Shown one piece after another: positions 1-54,384 of a stretch of 64,000 nucleotides of DNA. The stretch is from positions 10,903,274 through 10,967,273 of the forward strand of contig OZ038463.1 in the NCBI GenBank assembly GCA_964036295.1. The letters run 5' to 3'. The stretch's first letter is position 1; every line of letters begins with the position of its first letter. This stretch comes from Plumapathes pennacea. Taxonomy: Eukaryota; Cnidaria; Anthozoa; Antipatharia; Myriopathidae. The translations under genes were made by a program, and so were the position numbers. Under the pieces are notes generated by a model. The model saw only the letters and a list, made by a program, of their open reading frames with translations. It did not search any database and was not told where the DNA came from.

Positions 1-2720
1 TTATTACCAAAACCCGCGATTTATCGTGATCATCAAAACCCCCATACGTTTCCTCATAATCTTCAACAACTAGATCCAGACCCCGAGCTTTGGCTGCCTG
101 TGCGTCCCCGATCTCTTCGAGTAACTTCTGGAAGAATAATAGTATTATACAAATTTCTAACGCAAAATCGGATAATTGGCGAATTTAACATATTTAACAG
201 ACTTTTGAACCAGACCAAAGATTGACACGTTTGCGGCACTGCGTTGATGAAAATGAATTTTAAAACGGCTGGAAAACTAGAAACGCAACAGTCTCGCGAA
301 CTCAAAAGCTAACAAAGGGAGGGACCAAAAGTTGCCGCTACGAAGCGTAAAGCAAACGAGAAACAACTCGAACAGAACATGAAAGCACGTCAAATTAATT
401 CATACAGTCTGCCAAGCACGTTCTCAAAATTTAATACTTAAATTTTGAAGTTGGTCGGCCGTCGTAGTACGGAAAAAAGGAACACTAATTTTCCAATTTT
501 GAATTCATAGGCAGTACAATTAAATAGGCTTCCTGTGCGATTTGTTTTTACTCTGGACTGCATGCACCAGACCCCGGGAATGCATATTTAATAGGCTCGA
601 ATTGTTTTGTATGTAAACCCGCTCAAAACAGCATGATTTCTCCCAGAATCAAAGCAAAACTTGAACGGTTTACTTCAAATTATACACGGGCTTCAGACCT
701 AGTCATACCTCTAAAGGCTTGTGAACGATTCTCGCTGCAATCACCGCGTGTCAGATTACAGAAAAATAAGACATCTGACTAAATCATTCACCAAGTTCCG
801 ATTGCTCTGAGCGAATACGGTAGCCGAAACTGGCGACAGAAGCGTATTAAAACAATACTTCGAGGGAAAATGATCAGCACACAGATTTTAATACATTCTT
901 GAAGTGATCGAGTTGCAGGCTATACGGGATAGACGTCACGGTGATTGTTCGATTTCCACTGACTAACCTTTGTTGCTTGTCCTTTCCAAATAAGTATCTG
1001 AGTTTAACACAAAACGGCGTCTGAAGCTCCCGATTTGCTTGCAAGCGCTGTTCCCTTTGCGGAGCCGTTTCTTCGGCACGCTTCTGTTTATGATGCTGTC
1101 AATCATAACAGGATTGTCGCCTTTTCTCGAGACGAATTAGGCACTGTTCGCCCGTTTCACGATTTCGCCTTGCTCGTGCCTGTTCCCTTCTTATTTGAAG
1201 ACGAGTTTCGCAAGACTGTTGTGTTTCAAGTTTTCCAGTTTTTAAGTTTTCCATTTTCGTGAACGCAGCTACAATATATTGTTGCTTCGTTCAAATCTAA
1301 TTGCTTCGCTCAAATCTAATTTCTCTTTTTCCGAGTAAAACTACAGTGCACACGTGATCTATCCGGCCTTTGTTATTGGTTATGCAGGGTAACCGCGCCT
1401 AAAGTCGTACGCCAGACAGACTGACTGACTGACTGACTGACTGACTGACAGACGAACGTTAAATTTCGAGATGGCGACAGGCTTGGAGTCCCCAAGTTAG
1501 GCGATATTAATGCATTAGCGCCGTGATTATTACCCTCACTTCGCTTCGCTTCGCTTCGCTCGTGGACAAGATGTAGATATAAGGCCAAGCAGTTCGATGG
1601 ACGGCTATAAACGACCCGGACAAATTCTTCTTAATATTTTTGAACTTCAAAATGCTGCCAAGTTTGATGTTTTTATGCTATAATCTTGGGATTTTGCAAG
1701 TGTACATATTTATGCTCTTTCTATTCTATGATCTTTTCATTTTTGGAACACTATGCAATTTTTCAGTATCAGAGAGTCGGCGGAAACGAGGAAGCCGACT
1801 TGTCTGAGGATACGATATATCTGTCTCATTGTTGTTGATCCGTTTATTTGAGCTAGAACTTTCTCGCTTGCTTTATCGCGGTCTTCGCGCGAGTTATATT
1901 TAGTTCTTTTGGAGTTTAATTGAAGGGTAAAAAAAATAATTGTTACTCTTGGGAGGTGTTACTTTTTTGGGGGGGATGGCGTTACTTTCGGAATTGTACG
2001 GTACAAAATCAAGTATTCGCCCCAGACATCCTGTGGATTGACGCGGTCGCTTGGACAGAGATTTCTTGTGGTGTTAGAATGTTGTACACAACGCAAAAAC
2101 CGAAGGAACGAACAAAGAAACAAAGAAACAAAGAAAAAAACAGGCAAACAAAAACCACAGCAAGGACAATCATGTCGCATGAAGGCTTTTCCGAGCGAAT
2201 TATTCACCGATATATGGAATGTTAGTTTGGTAAATGAGACCACAAATTGGCTGCGTACCGGAAGTCGTAACCATAGCACTCGCCCCAGACCCCGTACAAC
2301 TAAGTGTCATGACCCCACCCCACTGCAAAGACTGTCCAAATTAATCCGAACACAAAATGCAAAAACGTCCAAACTGCAGCTCATCAACGATGCAAATATT
2401 GCTGTTAGAATGTCTTCATCGAGAGCTTTAATCATTTGAATTGTGTAGGTTTTTGTATGTCACGGTTTAGGAATTTTCTAGTTTCATCTGCCTTCAGTAA
2501 CTGAGAAATTATGTCAGTTTATTTCTGTGGCAACGGCCTGCACTCGTCCGTTTTTGTCTGAAAACGCAACTTTCTTCCCGTTCGAGAAAATTCCTCCGTT
2601 GACACAAATCGTTTCCGATTCGTTCTTGGTCGTCCACACACCGGCACTAAAACGCAAAAATGAATCGAGCCAGAGTATTTGATAAGTTCCGTTTACTTTT
2701 CGCCCGTCCACACTACAAGT
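1..2720. repeat. Long dispersed repeat, copy A (left end outside window)
   Basis: This block matches 12260-16605 almost base for base over its whole length, with only scattered substitutions. It starts at or before base 1, so the left boundary is unknown. It ends near 2720, where copy B continues into different sequence. Compared with copy B it lacks about 450 bases (12646-13095 in B) and the transposon at 14305-15472. It carries a GACT microsatellite (1416-1449), a TTCGC microsatellite near 1540-1560 and short AT-rich tracts. No open frame in it shows protein-like constraint. The last 200 bases have the GTCCACAC and AAAACGCA words common in small DNA elements. It may be a recent segmental duplication or a large non-autonomous mobile element; the sequence alone does not decide. 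Confidence 0.85.
1416..1449. repeat. GACT tetranucleotide microsatellite
   Basis: About eight GACT-type units in copy A of the long repeat. The matching site in copy B (14134-14155) has about two to three fewer units, so the tract has changed length since the two copies separated. Confidence 0.85.
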
Positions 2721-2878
2721 CTTGCGTGTTTCGCGGATATTATAAATTGCTCATTGCAACAAGGAACTTTCAGTTCCTGGACCGAAAATTCGAGCAAATT
2801 CAGTGGCACGCCAGATCATTGCAGAGGTGAGTTTTCCGGTCCGAGATGGAACTTATAAAATATGTTCTAGCAGTTCTC

Positions 2879-12259: not shown

Positions 12260-14304
12260 TTATTACCAAAACCCGCGATTTATCGTGATCATCAAAACCC
12301 CCATACGTTTCCTCACAATCTTCAACAACTAGATCCAGACCCCGAGCTTTGGCTGCCTGTGCGTCCCCCGATCTCTTCGAGTAACTTCTGGAAGAATAAT
12401 AGTATTATACAAATTTCTAACGCAAAATCGGATACTTGGCGAATTTAACATATTTAACAGACTTTTGAACCAGAACAAAGATTGACACGTTTGCAGCACT
12501 GCGTTGATGAAAATGAATTTTAAAACGGCTGGAAAACTAGAAACGCAACAGTCTCGCGAACTCAAAAGCTAACGAAGGGAGGGACCAAAAGTTGCCGCTA
12601 CGAAGCATAAAGCAAAACGAGAAACAACTCGAACAGAGCATGAAAGCTGATCGTTGAACATAACCCGAGACTTGCAAGACTTTAATGAGGTGTTGACACC
12701 TTTCGCTAAACAATGAGTTCTCGCTTTTATCCTTGATCCTTGCGAAGGTTGCTAATCGTTACACTCTCTCGATTATTAATGTTCGTCCGGAATGTGTGTC
12801 TGGCGGACGACACCCAGGCGCGGTAGCTAAGCTCGTGAAGCGGAGCACATGACCAGTGATTTTCTAAAACTAGAAATACGATAATCGCAGATATCCCCTC
12901 GCTCTGCCATTGATGAGACTTTTACTTTGGTACTCCCAACAAGAGTAGCCTTTGTTTTGCCGAAATGTTGACTCAATCTTTTCTTCGAACTCAAGTGCTA
13001 CACGCAAAGGACGGAGAAAAAGAATGGTGTGTGTTATACTTTTGCGTTAAAAAAAGAGTCGATTGCGTGACGAAGTACGTATTTTCCACGGTCGGCACGC
13101 CAAATTAATTCATACAGTCTGCCAAGCACGTTCTCAAAATTTAATACTTAAATTTTGAAGTTGGTCGGCCGTCGTAGTACGGAAAAAAGGAACACTGATT
13201 TTCCAATTTTGAATTCATAGGCAGTACAATTAAATAGGCTTCCTGTGCGATTTGTTTTTACTCTGGACTGCATGCACCAGACCCCGGGAATGCATATTTA
13301 ATAGGCTCGAATTGTTTTGTATGTAAACCCGCTCAAAACAGCATGATTTCTCCCAGAATCAAAGCAAAACTTGAACGGTTTACTTCAAATTATACACGGG
13401 CTTCAGACCTAGTCATACCTCTAAAGGCTTGTGAACGATTCTCGCTGCAATCACCGCGTGTCAGATTACAGAAAAATAAGACATCTGACTAAATCATTCA
13501 CCAAGTTCCGATTGCTCTGAGCGAATACGGTAGCCGAAACTGGCGACAGAAGCGTATTAAAACAATACTTCGAGGGAAAATGATCAGCACACAGATTTTA
13601 ATACATTCTTGAAGTGATCGAGTTACAGGCTATACGGGATAGAATATATTTGTCACGGTGATTGTTCGACTTCCACTGACTAACCTTTGTTGCTTGTCCT
13701 TTCTAAATAAGTATCTGAGTTTAACACAAAACGGCGTCTGAAGTTCCCGATTTGCTTGCAAGCGCTGTTCCCTTTGCGGAGCCGTTTCTTCGGCACGCCT
13801 CTGTTTATGATGCTGTCGATCATAACAGGATTGTCGCTATTTCTCGAGACGAATTAGGCGCTGTTCGCTCGTTTCACGATTTCGCCTTGCTCGTGCCTGT
13901 TCCCTTCTTATTTGAAGACGAGCTTCGCAAGACTGTTGTGTTTCAAGTTTTCCAGTTTTTAAGTTTTCCATTTTCGTGAACGCAGCTACAATATATTGTT
14001 GCTTCGTTCAAATCTAATTGCCTCGCTCAAATCTAATTTCTCTTATTCCGAGTAAAACTACAGTGCACACGTGATCTATCCGGCCTTTGTTATTGGTTAT
14101 GTAGGGTAACCGCGCCTAAAGTCGTACGCCAGACAGACTGACTGACTGACTGACAGACGAACGTTAAATTTCGAGATGGCGACAGGCTTGGAGTCCCCAA
14201 GTTAGGTGATATTAATGCATTAGCGCCGTGATTATTACCCTCACTTCGCTTCGCTTCGCTCGGGGACAAGATGTAGATATAAGGCCAAGCAGTTCGATGG
14301 ACGG

Positions 14305-15472
14305 CAACCTCGTTCCCAGGCTCTTTCGTCTCCCGGGCCACGCCCCCGAAGAAAGACCCTGGTTCAGGCTGGTCACGTGCATCGCTAACAAAAATAAATT
14401 GCTGGGAGGGGTCCCTTTATCAAATGAATTTGTCGTCCTGTGCGTTTGTCGAAATCTAAACGAGGCTGGAACAAACGACACATCCGCCATGTTCTTAGCA
14501 GTCTTCATTACGCTATTGTTAATAGCAGCTACTGGAACAAAATTCTCAAACCGAAACAAGTTAAGTGCTTGGAAGCAATTTATTCTGGAAGAGATACTGT
14601 CGCTGTGCTGCCAACGGGATACGGAAAGTCTATAATTTTTCATCTCCTTCCAGAACTTTTGTTCGACAAAATTAATTTTTGCGTTGTTCTTTCACAGAAC
14701 GGCAAAGCCTACAGCAACTTGACTGGTTGCTAGAAGCCGCGTAAACCTTTTTCGGGGTCACAGAGTGTAGCATTTGCCCTCCCAAGTTGAACCTGATTTC
14801 GTACTGTGACACACACGCGAGAGGTGTTAAACACGAGGGCGCTTCCCAGGGAAGCGCAGAGCCACTTGTTAGTCAACAGCGACCAACAACTCCTAATTAG
14901 TAAAACGCCAAAATTTTCCAAATTTTGTTTTTCCTTGTACTTGAATACCACGCAAAACAAGATGTTGCCTCACGAATTTTCCATCACATAAACATTCATT
15001 TTGAGTGCAATTTGAGTAAAATCCAAGAATAATCTTCAAAGCAAGAAGTTAAATATTCTTGGTGCGCAGCCATGCGTCGCATTAGACCGCGAAATTCAAA
15101 ATGTATTTTGGCAGCCAAAAGCAAAGTTTCGTTTTAGAACTCCACTTTGAAGTTGCCCGCATGTCTTTACGTTTAGGTATACTTTTAGTCGCCAAGCTGC
15201 AGAGAAATTGTATTATGGGCAGCGCGACTTCTGAACGCTGCAGGCGCACGTGCGATTCAGCAAACATTATGCAAATTTGGTGTCGAAAGCGGCGAGGCCA
15301 AAATGTTTCGTTCCCTAGTGGACAGAGTAGAGCAAATTTTCGACTTAACGGCCCCTCCCTCGGTTTCTTTTTTTGCAACCGGCCAGATTCTGGCCGACAC
15401 GTGACCAGCCTGAACCAGGGTCTTTCTTCGGGGGCGTGGCCCGGGAGACGAAAGAGCCTGGGAACGAGGTTG
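14305..15472. mobile_element. Nested DNA transposon, 75 bp perfect TIRs, 9 bp TSD
   Basis: The first 75 bases (14305-14379, starting CAACCTCGTTCCCAGGCTCT) are the exact reverse complement of the last 75 (15398-15472). The element is flanked on both sides by GATGGACGG (14296-14304 and 15473-15481), which is present once in copy A of the host repeat. This gives direct proof of insertion and its boundaries. Total length is 1,168 bp, so it is non-autonomous. A 9 bp duplication with long TIRs fits Mutator-like elements best; P or hAT elements usually make 8 bp duplications. The interior carries a fragment of a RecQ-type helicase frame. The perfect TIRs suggest recent movement. Confidence 0.92.
14488..14688 (+). 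pseudogene. RecQ-type DNA helicase fragment inside the transposon
   Basis: The frame reads LKPKQVKCLEAIYSGRDTVA then VLPTGYGKSIIFHLLPELLF. This is the start of a RecQ-family helicase core: the Q-like LKPKQ element followed by the Walker A motif (LPTGYGKS) and the hydrophobic helix after it. Homology stops about 20 residues past Walker A, before the DEAH box, so the protein cannot work. No ATG lies in this frame upstream. It is either a captured host exon or the remnant of a helicase ORF from a larger parent element. Confidence 0.72.
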
Positions 15473-16847
15473 GATGGACGGCTGTAAACGACCCGGACAA
15501 ATTCTTCTTAATATTTTTGAACTTCAAAATGCTGCCAAGTTTGATGTTTTTATGCTATACTCTTGGGATTTTGCAAGTGTACATAATTTTATGCTCTTTC
15601 CATTCTATGATCTTTTCATTTTTGGAACACTATGCAATTTTTCAGTATCAGAGAGTCGGCGGAAAAGAGGGAACCGACTTGTCTGAGGATACGATATATT
15701 TGTCTCATTGTTGTTGACCCGTTTATTTGAGCTAGAACTTTCTCGCTTGCTTTATTGCGGTCTTTGCGCGAGTTATATTTAGTTCTTTTGGAGTTTAATT
15801 GAAGGGTAAAAAAAAATAAATGTTACTCTTGGGAGATGTTACTTTTTTGGGGGGAGGGCGTTACTTTCGAAATTGTACGGTACAAAATCAAGTACTCGCC
15901 CCAGACACCCTGTGGAGTGACGCGGTTGCTCGGACAGAGATTTCTTGTGGTGTTAGAATGTTGTACACAACGCAAAAACCGAAGGAACGAACAAACAAAC
16001 AAACAAACAAACAGGCAAACAGAAACCACAGCAAGGACGATCATGTCGCATGAAGGCTTTTCCGAGCGCAATATTCACCAATATATGGAAATCAATGTTA
16101 GTTTGGTAAATGGGATCATCATTTATCAAAGAAATCGGCTGCGTACCGGAAGTCGTAACCATAGCACTCGCCCCAGACCCCGTACAACTAAGTGTCATAA
16201 CTCCACCCCACTGCAAAGACTGTCCAAATTAATCCGAACACAAAATGCAAAAACTTCCAAACTGCTGCTTATCAACGATGCGAATATTGCTGTTAGAATG
16301 TCCTCATCGAGAGCTTTAATCATTTGAATTGTGTAGGTTTTTATATGTCACGGTTTAGAAATTTTCTAGTTTCATCTGCCTTCAGTAACTGAGAAATTAT
16401 GTCAGTTTATTTCTGTGGCAACGGCCTGCACTCGTCCGTTTTTGTTTGAAAACGCAACTTTTTTCCCGTTTGCGAAAATTCCTCCGTTCACACAAATCGT
16501 TTTCGGTTCGTTCTTGGTCGTCCACATACACTAAAACGCAAAATTGAGTCGAGCCAGAGTATTTGATAAGTTCCGTTTACTTTTCGCCAGTCCACACTAC
16601 AGATTTGCGTTTTCAAAACATTGCATTTTCAAAATGATGCGTTTTCAAAAAATTCCACCCTGGAGAGCGTTTTCAAAAAGTTATGAGTTTCGTGACTGAA
16701 AAACCCGGACTGTGTGGACGGAAATCGAGCCTGCCTGTTTCATCAACGCATATTCTTGATTAAAAATCAAGAGTCGTTGATCGAGCGATCAATCCATCTA
16801 AGAATTCTTTTTTCCGCTCGTCACATTTCGATCTGCAGATGATCTGC

Positions 16848-46890: not shown

Positions 46891-47385
46891 AATCGGACTC
46901 CACTCAGTCCTATTACCATTATTGACAGATGCTCATCAGTTCTTCAGCTTCCCGTGATCTTCCCTAATCCAATAAGTAATTAGATACTAAAAAAAGAAAC
47001 CCTTATCTCGAACATTCTTGCTCGTTGCGCGCGTTACATTTATGTGTTGAAGGAGAATTAGAATCTAAATATTTGCTGCTCAAAGCTGTGTACTAACAAA
47101 AACATCCGTGGGTTGCCATTGACCTTGTGTTCTTTCTTTTTGTGAAACAACCCTACCTCTCCCCCTGTCCTTGAGTATGCAACCACTTGCTTTTATCAAA
47201 CCTGCTCTACTTTTCCACCCTTGTTTCCTGACAGAGTTGCCTTCGAACAAACCCAAATACATTGTATCACCTCCGACAGGCACATATCAGTTTCATGGTA
47301 TCACGCGATTTCGTGTCACATGATATGATAGGCATGTATACTACTGAATCGTCTTTATCAAAAGCCAACGCCTATGTTTATCAAG

Positions 47386-49599
47386 ATGGCTGCTTCAGGT
47401 TTATCTACTGCACTCAAGGAACAGCTATCTTGTTCGATCTGTTTAAGTGTCTACACCGAACCCAAGACTCTCAAGTGTCTCCACAGCTTCTGCTTGCCAT
47501 GTCTCAAAGAGATGGCTCTCAAAACTCGACCAGATATACCTTTGCGATGCCCCGATTGTCAAGAAGAAATTCAACTCCCACCGGGCGCTTCCTTTGACGT
47601 CCTTCCGAATTCTTTCTACTTTAAGCGCTTGTTGGAACTTCTCGCCATACAAGAGCCTCAGCAAACCACGGCGAACTGTGGCAGTTGTGACAGAAAGCAG
47701 CCCCTGACGAGCTTCTGTTTTGACTGTGGGCAGTTCCTGTGTGGCGAGTGCGAAAACGCTCACAGCTTCGTGGGTCTCTTGAAAGGTCACAGACGCGTTA
47801 CCCTGTTGCAGCTTAAAGATAAAGACATGCACGACTTCTTGGAGCGACCAGAAATCTGTAGCATCGAGTATCACGACCAAGAAAAGCTGGAATACTTCTG
47901 TGAAGATTGCCAAAGTTGCATTTGTCAGAAGTGCGCGCTAGTGGAACACAAACCGCACCAGTATGTCCACATCAAGAAAGCTGCCGACCAGTGCAAAGCA
48001 GCCATGACGGAAGCGGTCAACGAAGTGAAAACGAAGATTCCTTTTGTCCAGCAAGCGATAAAGAAAGCAGAAGAGAGTTTTGTCATGACCGAGCAAGAAA
48101 TAAGAGCTGTAAGGCTTAAAGTTGACGAACAAGTTGAACATTTCATTCGACTTTTGAGGCAACACAAAACCAAAATGATCTCGGAACTTGAGAGCATTGA
48201 ACAAAGCGAGAGGCGTCGGTGCGAAGCGAAGCGAATTGATTTGGAAGTACGGTTGGCGCAGCTGAATAGTGGAGTGGAATTTGTGGACGCTGTGGTGGAG
48301 AGAAACCTGACGAATGAGATCATCAACACACACGACTCGGCTATCAATCGATGCGCCGAGCTGGCAGCCGACGACGAACGAGGAAACGAAGGAGGAAAAA
48401 TCAGAATAAGATACAAAGCTTTCAAAGAGTTTGTTGTGACAGCAGCCAAAGTCACGCCAGGTCGTGTGCTTGTAACAGGTCTGGTACATCCTTCCCGTTC
48501 AACTGTCGAAGGCGAAAAGCTAAGAGAGACGACTGCTGGAAAACAAGCCGAATTTGCTGTTATCACGAGAGATTCACAAGGCAACGTTTGTTCCGATGAA
48601 GGAGATTGTGTTGAAGTGACAATCAAGTCAAGTGCTGGAGAAGCTGTGGAATCGACCGTGCTGGACCGGAAGGACGGACACTACACAGTACAGTACACTC
48701 CAAGGAATGTTGGCAGCTGTGAAGTGACGGTGCTGATCACAGGATCCCGACAGGCTGTAGCCGGGAGTCCTTTTGAGGTGCGCGTCAGAGAGAGGGAGTT
48801 CAAGCCGCTGAAGACGTTTGGTTCACAAGGAAGTGGAGCAGGACAGTTTTTATGCCCAAGGGGGATTGCCGTGAGCAGCACAGGTGAAGTGGCTGTGGCA
48901 GATTCCGGTAATCACCGCATCCAGTTGTTCACCAGTGACGGCCAACACCTGAGAACGATTGGTAGCAAAGGTTCAGGAAGAGGAGAAGTGAACGGACCTA
49001 CAGGAATAGCATTTGATTACCAGGATAGACTTATTGTTGCAGACTATTACAACAATAGGGTACAAATTGTAACCACAGCGGGACAGTCCGTAAAGATATT
49101 TGGTGAGAAGGAGCTGGAACATCCGTTAGGTGTTTGCGTGACGAATGAAGGGAACATTGCTGTTTGTAGTCAACATGAACAGCGAGGCGTGAAGGTGTTC
49201 ACTCAAGATGGATTGCTGATCAGGCAGTTTCATGACTCAAAAAGAAACAACAATCCTGTTGGTGTTACTTTCAGCAGCGACAAGTTCTTTGTGAGTTACG
49301 CTGAGGACCATGGTGTGTCGGTGTTCAGCAGGGAGGGGATTCTCCAGTTCTCATTTGGTCTGGATACACAGTTCTACCCCTACAGTCTAGCGATCGAGAA
49401 AAGTAACAAACTTCTTTTGTGTGACCATTTAAATAACAGAATCCTAGTCTTCACAATAGAAGGTCAGTTTTTACAGAAGATAGGATCCAAGGGAACTGCC
49501 CTTGGAGAATTTTCTCAGCCTGTGGGCATCACAGCAAGTCCCAGTGGAGAAGTTTATGTGAGCGAGTTGTCAGGTCACAGAGTGCAAGTTTTGGCGTGA
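47386..49599 (+). CDS. TRIM-NHL protein (RING, 2 B-boxes, coiled coil, filamin, 6 NHL)
   Basis: A single uninterrupted exon of 737 codons. An in-frame ATG lies four codons upstream (47374), but the one at 47386 has the better context (CAAGATGG) and begins MAASGLSTALKEQ like other TRIMs. Domains: C3HC4 RING (about 16-60, CSICL...CPDC), B-box 1 (about 96-140), B-box 2 (about 155-200), coiled coil (about 200-320), filamin/Ig domain (about 365-465), and six NHL repeats (about 472-737) that should close a beta-propeller. This is the TRIM2/TRIM3/TRIM71 architecture: RING-dependent ubiquitin ligases whose NHL propellers bind protein or RNA in the cytoplasm. It is intronless, unlike many vertebrate relatives, so it may be an old retrocopy or a member of an intronless expansion. 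Which of TRIM2, 3 or 71 it is closest to cannot be told by eye. Confidence 0.93.
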   Translation: MAASGLSTALKEQLSCSICLSVYTEPKTLKCLHSFCLPCLKEMALKTRPDIPLRCPDCQEEIQLPPGASFDVLPNSFYFKRLLELLAIQEPQQTTANCGSCDRKQPLTSFCFDCGQFLCGECENAHSFVGLLKGHRRVTLLQLKDKDMHDFLERPEICSIEYHDQEKLEYFCEDCQSCICQKCALVEHKPHQYVHIKKAADQCKAAMTEAVNEVKTKIPFVQQAIKKAEESFVMTEQEIRAVRLKVDEQVEHFIRLLRQHKTKMISELESIEQSERRRCEAKRIDLEVRLAQLNSGVEFVDAVVERNLTNEIINTHDSAINRCAELAADDERGNEGGKIRIRYKAFKEFVVTAAKVTPGRVLVTGLVHPSRSTVEGEKLRETTAGKQAEFAVITRDSQGNVCSDEGDCVEVTIKSSAGEAVESTVLDRKDGHYTVQYTPRNVGSCEVTVLITGSRQAVAGSPFEVRVREREFKPLKTFGSQGSGAGQFLCPRGIAVSSTGEVAVADSGNHRIQLFTSDGQHLRTIGSKGSGRGEVNGPTGIAFDYQDRLIVADYYNNRVQIVTTAGQSVKIFGEKELEHPLGVCVTNEGNIAVCSQHEQRGVKVFTQDGLLIRQFHDSKRNNNPVGVTFSSDKFFVSYAEDHGVSVFSREGILQFSFGLDTQFYPYSLAIEKSNKLLLCDHLNNRILVFTIEGQFLQKIGSKGTALGEFSQPVGITASPSGEVYVSELSGHRVQVLA

Positions 49600-51060: not shown

Positions 51061-54000
51061 CGCGGGTCGCGAGTAATAAGATCAAATTATCCCTAAAACT
51101 TTTCAAAGAAAAGAGCATAATTATGCGTAGTTTTCTTGCTATATCTCGTGAACGGCTGAAGAAAATAAGACAAATGTATTGCAGAAAGTTTCGATATAGT
51201 CCTAGGAAGGTTTCCTGAAAGTTTCAAGAGTTTCAAAATTTTGCTCAAAATCGGCTATTTTTGGCAAAAAGCATGGGCTTTAGCCTTACCATTTTTTCAA
51301 AAATTGGCCATTTTCGGCCTAATCTCAGATTCCCATGAAACTTTCAGGAAATGTTCCTGGGAGTATAGCGAAGGTTTTGATATAAAATTTGTGGCATTTT
51401 ATAGAGCGGGTCGCGAGTAATAAGAGCATATTATCCCCTAAAACTCCACCCTTTTCAAACAAAACAGCATAATTATGCGTAGTTTTCTTGCTATATCTCG
51501 TGAACGGCTGAAGAATAAAAGACAAATGTATTGCAGAAAGTCTCGATATAGTCCTAGGAAGGTTTCCTGAAAGTTTCAAGAGTTTAAAAATTTTGCTCAA
51601 AATCGGCTATTTTTGGCAAAAAGCATGGGCTATAGCCTTACCATTTTTTCAAAAATGGGCCATTTTCGGCCTAATCTCAGATTCGCATGAGACTTTCAGG
51701 AAATGTTCCTGGGAGTATAGCGAAGGTTTTGAAATAAAATTTGGGGCATTTTATAGAGCGGGTCGCGAGTAATAAGAGCATATTATCCCCTAAAACTTCA
51801 CCCTTTTCAAAGAAAAGAGCATGATAATTATGCGTAGTTTTCTTGCTACATCTCGTGAACGGCTGAAGAAAGTAAGACAAATGTATTGCAGAAAGTCTCG
51901 ATATAGTCCTAGGAAGATTTCCTGAAAGTTTCAAGAGTTTCAAAATTTTGCTCAAAATCGGCTATTTTTGGCAAAAAGCATGGGCTATAGCCTTACCATT
52001 TTTCAAAAATTGGCCATTTTCGGCCTAATCTCAGATTCGCATGAGACTTTCAGGAAATGCTCCTGGGAGTATAGCGAAGGTTTTGATATAAAATTTGGGG
52101 CATTTTATAGAGCGGGTCGCGAGTAATAAGAGCATATTATCCCCTAAAACTTCACCCTTTTTAAACAAAAGAGCATAATTATGCGTAGTTTTCTTGCTAT
52201 ATCTCGTGAACGGCTGAAGAATAAAAGACAAATGTATTGCAGAAAGTCTCGATATAGTCCTAGGAAGGTTTCCTGAAAGTTTCAAGAGTTTAAAAATTTT
52301 GCTCAAAATCGGCTATTTTTGGCAAAAAGCATGGGCTATAGCCTTACCATTTTTTCAAAAATGGGCCATTTTCGGCCTAATCTCAGATTCACATGAGACT
52401 TTCAGGAAATGTTCCTGGGAGTATAGCGAAGGTTTTGATATAAAATTTGTGGCATTTTATAGAGCGGGTCGCGAGTAATAAGAGCATATTATCCCCTAAA
52501 ACTTCACCCTTTTCAAAGAAAAGAGCATGATAATTATGCATAGTTTTCTTGCTATATCTCGTGAACGGCTGAAGAAAATAAGACAAATGTATTGCAGAAA
52601 GTCTCGACAAAGTCCTAGGAAGGTTTCCTGAAAGTTTCAAGAGTTTCAAAATTTTGCTCAAAATCGGCTATTTTTGGCAAAAAGCACGGGCTATAGCCTT
52701 ACCATTTTTTCAAAAATGGGCCATTTTCGGCCTAATCTCAGATTCGCATGAAACTTTGAGGAAATGTTTCTGGGAGTATAGCGAAGGTTTTGATATAAAA
52801 TCTGTGGTATTTTATAGAGCGGGTCGCGAGTAATAAGAGCATATTATCCCCTAAAACTTCACCCTTTTTAAACAAAAGAGCATAATTATGCGTAGTTTTC
52901 TTGCTATATCTCGTGAACGGCTGAAGAAAATAAGACAAATGTATTGCAGAAAGTCTCGACATAGTCCTAGGAAGGTTTCCTGAAAGTTTCAAGAGTTTTA
53001 AAATTTTGCTCAAAAATTGGCTGTTTTTGGCAAAAAGCATGGGCTATAGCCTTACCATTTTTCAAAAATTGGCCATTTTCGGCCTAATCTCAGATTCGCA
53101 AGAGACATTCAGGAAATGTTCCTGGAAGTATAGCGAAGGTTTTGATATAAAATTTGGGGCATTTTATAGAGCGGGTCGCAAGTAATAAGAGCATATTATC
53201 CCCTAAAACTTCACCCTTTTCAAACAAAACAGCATAATTATGCGTAATTTTCTTGCTATATCTCGTGAACGGCTGAAGAATAAAAGACAAATGTATTGCA
53301 GAAAGTCTCGATATAGTCCTAGGACGGTTTCCTGAGAGTTTCAAGAGTTTTAAAATTTTGCTCAAAATTGGCTATTTTTGGCAAAAAGCATATCTTACTA
53401 TTTTTTCAAAAATTGGCCATTTTCGGCCTAATCTCAGATTCGCATGAGACTTTCAGGAAATGTTCCTGGGAGTATAGCGAAGGTTTTGATATAAAATTTG
53501 GGGCATTTTATAGAGCGGGTCGCGAGTAATAAGAGCATATTATCCCCTAAAACTTCACCCTTTTCAAAGAAAAGAGCATGATAATTATGCGTAGTTTTCT
53601 TGCTACATCTCGTGAACGGCTGAAGAATAAAAGACAAATGTATTGCAGAAAGTCTCGATATAGTCCTAGGAAGGTTTCCTGAAAGTTTCAAGAGTTTAAA
53701 AATTTTGCCCAAAATCGGCTATTTTTGACAAAAAGCATGGGCTATAGCCTTACCATTTTTTCAAAAATGGGCCATTTTCGGCCTAATCTCAGATTCACAT
53801 GAGACTTTCAGGAAATGTTCCTGGGAGTATAGCAAAGGTTTTGATATAAAATCTGTGGCATTTTATAGAGCGGATCGCAAGTAATAAGAGCATATTATCC
53901 CCTAAAACTTCACCCTTTTCAAACAAAACAGCATAATTATGCGTAGTTTTCTTGCTACATCTCGTTAACGGCTGAAGAAAATAAGGCAAATGTATTGCAG

Positions 54001-54384
54001 AAAGTCTCGATATAGTCCTAGGAAGGTTTCCTGAAAGTTTCAAGAGTTTTAAAATTTTGCTCAAAATCGGCTATTTTTGGCTTCGGCCTAATCTCAGATT
54101 CGCATGAGACTTTCAGGAAATGTTCCTGGGAGTATAGCGAAGTTTTGATATAAAATCTGTGGCATTTTATAGAGCGGGTCGCGAGTAATAAGAGCATATT
54201 ATCCCCTAAAACTTCACCCTTTTCAAACAAAAGAGCAAAATTGTAGTTTTCTTGCTATATCTCATGAACGGCTGAAGAAAATAAGACAAATGTATTGCAG
54301 AAAGTCTCGAGATAGTCCTAGGAAGGTTTCTGAAAGTTTCAAGAGTTTTAAAGTTTTGCTCCTGGGAGTATAGCGAAGGTTTGA
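51061..54384. repeat. Satellite array, about ten units of about 350 bp
   Basis: The word GCGGGTCGCGAGTAATAAG recurs near 51063, 51405, 51758, 52113, 52464, 52818, 53173, 53515, 53870 and 54175, so unit lengths are about 342 to 355 bases; the last unit is truncated. Units are very similar. Each contains a 12-base palindrome GCATAATTATGC and a longer imperfect hairpin: CGATATAGTCCTAGGAAGG then TTTCCTGAAAGTTTCA on one side mirrors TGAAACTTTCAGGAAATGTT then CCTGGGAGTATAGCG on the other, with GGCTATAGCC at the centre in most units (for example 51628-51637). Minus-strand frames of about 90 codons occur in eight units, but they follow from the unit sequence and show no known domain. Confidence 0.93.

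What the first reader, a model, noticed from the sequence alone, without database searches (positions are those of the whole stretch)
14296..15481. Transposon with perfect 75 bp TIRs and 9 bp TSD carrying a RecQ helicase fragment
Boundaries are proved by comparison with the empty site in copy A (GATGGACGG once there, twice here). The long TIRs and the 9 bp duplication fit Mutator-like elements. The cargo is the Q-like and Walker A part of a RecQ-type helicase, cut off before the DEAH box. Plant Pack-MULEs carry host gene pieces this way; animal cases are little described. The alternative is that this is an internally deleted child of a larger element that encodes its own helicase.
Basis: partly seen in the sequence, partly recalled or inferred. 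Interest (0 to 1): 0.72.

Follow-up and report, generated by a model that had tools for sequence, protein, structure and literature searches.

The report
Gutted offspring of helicase-carrying jumping gene
This is a short copy of a jumping DNA element that seems to have kept only the first pieces of its parent's two genes (a RecQ-type helicase and a probable transposase), so the helicase piece looks like the parent's own and not like one stolen from the host.

Summary
In detail: 14305-15472 has perfect 75 bp TIRs, an exact 9 bp duplication, and an empty site in the window's other copy of the region. I compared 19 complete copies (mean difference 1.3%) and 24 of a sister form; the TIR tip occurs 625 times in the genome.

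A long C1 relative carries the same helicase start (98.4% DNA identity), which runs on to the DEAH box; convergent to it lies a DUF6589 gene. A full-length C9 relative (6,249 bp, similar TIR tips, exact 9 bp duplication) has the same pair. Of 32 DUF6589 loci, 18 have a helicase match within 13 kb, 16 convergent (random mean 0.55). The window element's other half starts a zf-AD exon on the minus strand; in the C9 element such an exon precedes DUF6589.

So it is an internal-deletion derivative, junction 14675/14676. It works like AcademH (helicase, 9-10 bp duplications); Academ membership could not be tested. DUF6589 ("unknown function") is the likely transposase, by inference.

The parts
14296..14304 (.). 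left target site duplication GATGGACGG
   Evidence: exact match to 15473-15481; single copy at 1596-1604 in the empty site
14305..14379 (+). left terminal inverted repeat (helicase-gene end)
   Evidence: 75 nt, 100% complementary to 15398-15472
14488..14675 (+). start of the family's RecQ-type helicase gene (up to LPELLFDKIN, Walker A included); the ATG just upstream is in another frame in this copy
   Evidence: element positions 56-371 are 98.4% identical to the long C1 relative
14674..14676 (.). deletion junction between helicase end and zf-AD end; 2 bp (AA, 14674-14675) shared by both sides
   Evidence: three-way comparison with the two ends at C1:26.03-26.04 Mb
14675..14773 (-). first 33 codons of a zf-AD exon, taken to be the 5' exon of the DUF6589 (putative transposase) gene; that link is inferred from the C9 element
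   Evidence: tblastn to the exon at C1:26034005-26034340, which matches Pfam zf-AD at 5.5e-11
14774..15397 (-). end region outside the zf-AD exon, no gene recognised
   Evidence: element positions 366-1168 align to C1:26033309-26034108 at 96.9%
15398..15472 (-). right terminal inverted repeat (zf-AD end)
15473..15481 (.). right target site duplication GATGGACGG
1596..1604 (.). empty target site in the other copy of the duplicated window region

Best explanation
The element is a non-autonomous, internally deleted derivative of a TIR DNA transposon whose full form carries two convergent genes: a RecQ-type helicase reading in from one end and a zf-AD + DUF6589 protein, the putative DDE-type transposase, reading in from the other. 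A deletion with 2 bp of microhomology removed the middle and left the starts of both genes between intact 75 bp TIRs. Shown: the anatomy; the source of the helicase half; that the other half is the start of a zf-AD exon; the 9 bp duplications; low divergence between copies. Inferred: that the zf-AD exon is the 5' exon of a DUF6589 gene in this family; that full-length relatives supply the DUF6589 protein, and perhaps the helicase, in trans; that these act on the TIRs, cut the element out and insert it with a 9 bp stagger. Among known elements it works most like AcademH transposons.
For: Same helicase start in a long C1 relative, running on 205 aa to DEAHC. Right half is the start of a zf-AD exon; a zf-AD-like exon (33% identity, E 8.8e-9) lies just inside one TIR of the C9 element, ahead of and in the direction of its DUF6589 frame. 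Full-length C9 relative with both genes, 80 bp TIRs beginning CAACCTCGTT and exact 9 bp TSD AGAAGGCTG. A second full-length type (7.6 kb, 102 bp TIRs, same convergent pair) on C8 and C11, TSDs of 8 and 9 bp. DUF6589 and helicase paired at 18 of 32 loci, 16 convergent; random placement, any orientation, mean 0.55, maximum 4 in 500 trials. Of 45 TIR pairs (two of them cross-pairs of neighbouring elements) 35 have an exact 9 bp TSD and 40 at most 1 mismatch; swapped flanks 4 of 1980. Sister form e2 has a different junction further along the same helicase gene.
Against: No intact long copy with exactly this TIR was found. The C1 long copy holds a Gypsy-like insertion, has its DUF6589 frame in pieces, lacks 30 bp of one TIR and has no matching TSD; its own DUF6589 end matches the window element only at 83-87% and in another order, and no zf-AD exon was found in it. 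The zf-AD exon that the window matches lies in a neighbouring piece cut off by that long element's TIR, not in a complete copy. The C9 element shows no DNA match to the window element at E 0.01, only protein likeness and similar TIR tips. No zf-AD match was found in the C8 element. 14 of 32 DUF6589 loci have no helicase match within 13 kb and two pairs are not convergent. That DUF6589 is the transposase rests on association and on conserved D, D and E motifs; no fold could be predicted, and the PDB profile search found nothing meaningful.
Confidence: 0.88

Rival explanations
1. Pack-MULE-like capture: a Mutator-like element picked up a fragment of a host RecQ gene.
Against: The 50 residues before the junction are identical to the helicase of the TIR-bounded C1 long element, which runs on to the DEAH box. 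In one search (150 of 265 candidates scored) no place that I took for a host gene matches as well; weaker matches of 72% and 68% were not traced, and the 58% one lies in the full-length C9 element. No Mutator domain at E 0.1 in Pfam scans of pieces of the long elements. The other half is a zf-AD exon start.
Confidence: 0.03
2. It is formally an AcademH element (non-autonomous member of the Academ superfamily).
For: AcademH generates 9 or 10 bp TSDs and encodes a helicase (PMC10045372, passage). Here: RecQ-type helicase in relatives, mostly 9 bp TSDs, one exact 10 bp (L029).
Against: The Academ transposase could not be compared: the describing paper is not held and no reference sequence was on hand. 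XPG_I, sought as a link to AcademX, gave 4 matches, none near the DUF6589 loci. One full-length copy of another subfamily has an 8 bp TSD.
Confidence: 0.75
3. The helicase/DUF6589 elements are a superfamily of their own, distinct from Academ and the other named superfamilies.
For: Pfam calls DUF6589 a family of unknown function, and the word occurs in 0 papers of the open-licence library searched.
Against: Helicase plus 9-10 bp TSD is already described for AcademH.
Confidence: 0.2

Closest known systems
AcademH DNA transposons (Kojima 2020, not held; seen only through a passage and reference entries in PMC10045372)
   Same: DNA transposon with a helicase and 9 or 10 bp target duplications; animals and fungi, by the paper's title
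   Different: transposase homology to DUF6589 not tested; an 8 bp TSD in one full-length copy of a related subfamily; the window copy has lost most of both genes
KolobokH DNA transposons (PMC9587614, passages)
   Same: transposase plus RecQ helicase; a rhodophyte Kolobok also has RecQ on the complementary strand
   Different: Kolobok makes TTAA 4 bp duplications and KolobokH is reported there only from fungi; here 9 bp with variable sequence
Mutator-like elements / Pack-MULEs
   Same: long TIRs, 9 bp duplications
   Different: no Mutator domain found; cargo matches the family's own gene ends
Ds/dSpm-type internal deletion derivatives and MITEs (recalled)
   Same: both ends of a longer element kept, middle lost, many near-identical short copies
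   Different: no difference of principle seen

Membership tests
AcademH | helicase gene inside the element | tested here: met
   in long relatives, not whole in the window copy: DEAD 7.2e-16 (C1) and 7.8e-14 (C9), Helicase_C 1.4e-14 (C9) and 1.3e-19 (C8); nearest solved chains WRN, BLM, RecQ
AcademH | 9 or 10 bp target site duplication | tested here: met
   45 TIR pairs, two of them cross-pairs: 35 exact 9 bp, 5 with one mismatch, one exact 10 bp (L029), L017 and L045 without; one full-length copy of another subfamily with 8 bp
AcademH | Academ-type DDE transposase | not testable with these tools
   no Academ reference sequence; structure prediction off. Motifs written by me after seeing the sequences: DLxxE-like in 14 of 14 loci scanned; DN, GDxLT and E all in the 3 loci whose whole DUF6589 region was in hand
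Mutator-like element | Mutator transposase in the autonomous partner | tested here: not met
   Pfam matches over the cut-off in the pieces scanned are DUF6589, helicase families (DEAD, ResIII, Helicase_C) and zf-AD
Pack-MULE | cargo copied from a host gene outside the element | tested here: not met
   helicase part 98.4% identical to the family's own long relative; other part is the start of a zf-AD exon found beside a family TIR
KolobokH | TTAA 4 bp duplication | tested here: not met
   9 bp, variable sequence
internal-deletion (non-autonomous) derivative | both ends of a longer element kept, middle lost at one junction | tested here: met
   left 371 bp match a helicase end, right 797 bp match a zf-AD end, junction 14675/14676; one complete parent holding both exact ends was not found

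The most novel reading that the evidence does not exclude
DUF6589 proteins are the transposases of a large, unrecognised animal superfamily of helicase-bearing TIR transposons, separate from Academ, in which a RecQ-type helicase helps transposition; many RecQ-like and DUF6589 genes annotated in such genomes would then be its members.
Probability: 0.2. Interest if true: 0.6.

Novelty: new member of a known kind. Interest (0 to 1): 0.38.

Why it matters
It clears up an apparent gene capture: the helicase piece is most likely the transposon's own. It also proposes a role for DUF6589 (Pfam: family of unknown function) as the transposase of helicase-carrying elements, which makes the function of such proteins testable, and it warns that RecQ-like genes in such genomes can be transposon genes rather than host repair genes.

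Tried and rejected
Pack-MULE capture of host RecQ: see rivals. Kolobok: rejected on the TSD. Structure of DUF6589: prediction switched off. PDB profile search with alignment A2: 2 chains, best E 0.095, meaningless. Viral contigs with the DUF6589 protein: no match. XPG_I in the genome as a link to AcademX: 4 matches, none near DUF6589 loci. TIRs of the C2 pair (L090) were not established. Literature, in the open-licence library only: 'DUF6589' 0 papers; 'Academ'+'XPG'+'transposase' as whole words 0 papers; other searches. The C1 long stretch was first taken for the direct parent; it is a broken relative without a TSD. I noted a 4 bp microhomology at first (note); the three-way comparison gives 2 bp. 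That note also writes 'C9 parent flanks L078: no TSD'; L078 is on C1. Host species not identified: 290 Mb in 24 contigs.

Rows dropped or limited: one search used 47 sources and gave 45 TIR pairs, two of which are cross-pairs in L030; sources without two TIR ends gave no row. In one search, 33 DUF6589 rows were merged to 32 loci; helicase rows were typed by hand by start position, rows repeating one search place left out, and merged to 185 loci; both helicase searches scored 150 candidates (of 265 and 255). DUF6589 places seen only in the later family search are not in that count. A2 left out 5 of the 19 rows.

Full report
What is there. The window element spans 14305-15472 (1168 bp) with 75 bp TIRs that are perfectly complementary and the exact 9 bp duplication GATGGACGG on both sides. 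The window holds a second copy of the surrounding region without the insertion; there GATGGACGG occurs once, at 1596-1604. Most simply, the insertion came after the duplication.

It is a family. A search of the window's own genome (290 Mb, 24 contigs) found many copies; 40 of 591 candidates were scored. I compared 19 complete copies of this form (mean pairwise difference 1.33%, maximum 3.16%) and 24 of a sister form, e2 (mean 1.56%). Of 45 TIR pairs, two are cross-pairs between the neighbouring elements of L030; 35 have an exact 9 bp duplication and 40 at most one mismatch; swapping left and right flanks between rows gives 4 of 1980. One copy (L029) has an exact 10 bp duplication; L017 and L045 have no good one. 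The first 26 bases of the TIR occur 625 times with at most one mismatch, against 0 for the backward control.

The helicase piece looks like the family's own. Element positions 56-371 are 98.4% identical to one end of a long element at C1:26034342-26043840, where the open frame runs on, 205 aa in all, through Walker A to DEAHC. Pfam finds DEAD at 7.2e-16; the nearest solved chains are WRN, BLM and RecQ. A further piece of that gene matches Helicase_C and RecQ_Zn_bind only below the cut-offs. The sister form e2 keeps more of the same gene, up to QSPPY, and has its own junction. Two different deletions of one gene fit internal-deletion derivatives better than capture of a host exon. Caution: the helicase search scored 150 of 265 candidates, and matches of 72% and 68% were not traced.

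The other half is the start of a zf-AD exon. Element positions 366-1168 match C1:26033309-26034108 at 96.9%, and there the sequence continues into an exon for a zf-AD zinc finger (Pfam zf-AD, 5.5e-11). This piece lies beside the long C1 element and is cut off by that element's TIR. The window element keeps the exon's first 33 codons on the minus strand, 14773 to 14675. At the junction the helicase side fits through 14675 and the zf-AD side from 14674, so two bases (AA) are shared. That the exon belongs to a DUF6589 gene is inferred from the C9 element below; the long C1 element gave no zf-AD match of its own, and its DUF6589 end is only 83-87% like the window element, in another order.

Full-length relatives. 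At C9:8326589-8332837 lies a 6,249 bp element with 80 bp TIRs (96% alike) that open with CAACCTCGTT, as the window's do, and an exact 9 bp duplication AGAAGGCTG. It holds, from one end, a zf-AD-like exon (33% identity, E 8.8e-9) and a 622-aa open frame with DUF6589 (3.4e-31), and from the other, convergent, a helicase with DEAD (7.8e-14) and Helicase_C (1.4e-14). It has no DNA match to the window element at E 0.01. A second type, at C8:4399283-4406891 and C11:10407821-10415428, is about 7.6 kb long with 102 bp TIRs; the copies are 99.9% identical and carry a DUF6589 frame and a convergent helicase; no zf-AD match was found; their duplications are 8 bp (AGATTAAA) and 9 bp (AGCTGGACG). Of 32 DUF6589 loci, 18 have a helicase match within 13 kb and 16 of these are convergent; random placement gives 0.55 on average and 4 at most in 500 trials. 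Fourteen have no such match and two pairs are not convergent. A profile search with PF20231 gives 44 matched stretches here and none in 14 control genomes; the controls named are archaea, so this control says little about animals.

Is DUF6589 the transposase? It is the other recognisable gene that these elements share. Among the rows of A2 that cover it, one glutamate (E506 of the C9 frame) is invariant. Motifs that I wrote after seeing the sequences (DN, GDxLT, DLxxE) give the E motif in 14 of 14 loci scanned and all three in the three loci whose gene region was covered. This fits a DDE transposase, but the fold could not be tested, so the step is inferred.

How it works. Inferred from the anatomy: full-length relatives supply the DUF6589 protein, which recognises the TIRs and cuts and pastes the short copy with a 9 bp stagger; the helicase may help at the ends. 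The short copies spread as passengers. In this copy the ATG before the helicase start is in another frame, and most of the gene is gone, so it cannot make a working helicase.

What it is like. AcademH generates 9 or 10 bp duplications and encodes a helicase (PMC10045372, a passage). The paper that describes it (Kojima 2020) is not held. KolobokH carries RecQ helicases too, but Kolobok makes TTAA duplications and KolobokH is reported only from fungi (PMC9587614, passages). No Mutator domain appeared in the pieces scanned. So it works like AcademH and probably is one; the defining transposase comparison is open.

Verdict. Real and mobile in the past; not a Pack-MULE; a non-autonomous member of a helicase-bearing transposon family. 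Of moderate interest, mainly for linking DUF6589 to transposition.

Noticed in passing
window 1-2732 and 12260-16614: Segmental duplication, 92.6-97.7% identical in pieces; only the second copy holds the transposon.
   Followed up: partly
window 51062-54361: Tandem array with a unit of about 350 bp, copies about 94% alike.
   Followed up: no
G000:C1:12158820-12159968 (L030) and other places: A more diverged non-autonomous subfamily (about 83-93% like the window element in pieces) carries a decayed zf-AD exon; many of the 150 zf-AD matches listed show two in-frame TGA stops.
   Followed up: partly
L078 (C1:26036300-26044000): A Gypsy-like LTR retrotransposon (recognised by eye) with about 170 bp repeats at its ends (99.4% alike) lies just behind the DUF6589 frame of the long C1 copy.
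   Followed up: no
G000:C9:8326172-8333415 (L105, L089): A second inverted pair (GTAGTCTGCT..., about 86 bp, 85%) encloses the full-length C9 element, as if that had inserted into another, roughly 1 kb TIR element.
   Followed up: no
G000:C11:10486654-10489436: A further DUF6589 match (family search only) lies convergent to a helicase match and was not in the pair count.
   Followed up: no
G000:C9:371732-371791: Two TIR ends face each other within 60 bp.
   Followed up: no
window 47332-49599: Single open frame for a RING, B-box, filamin and NHL protein (TRIM type).
   Followed up: no
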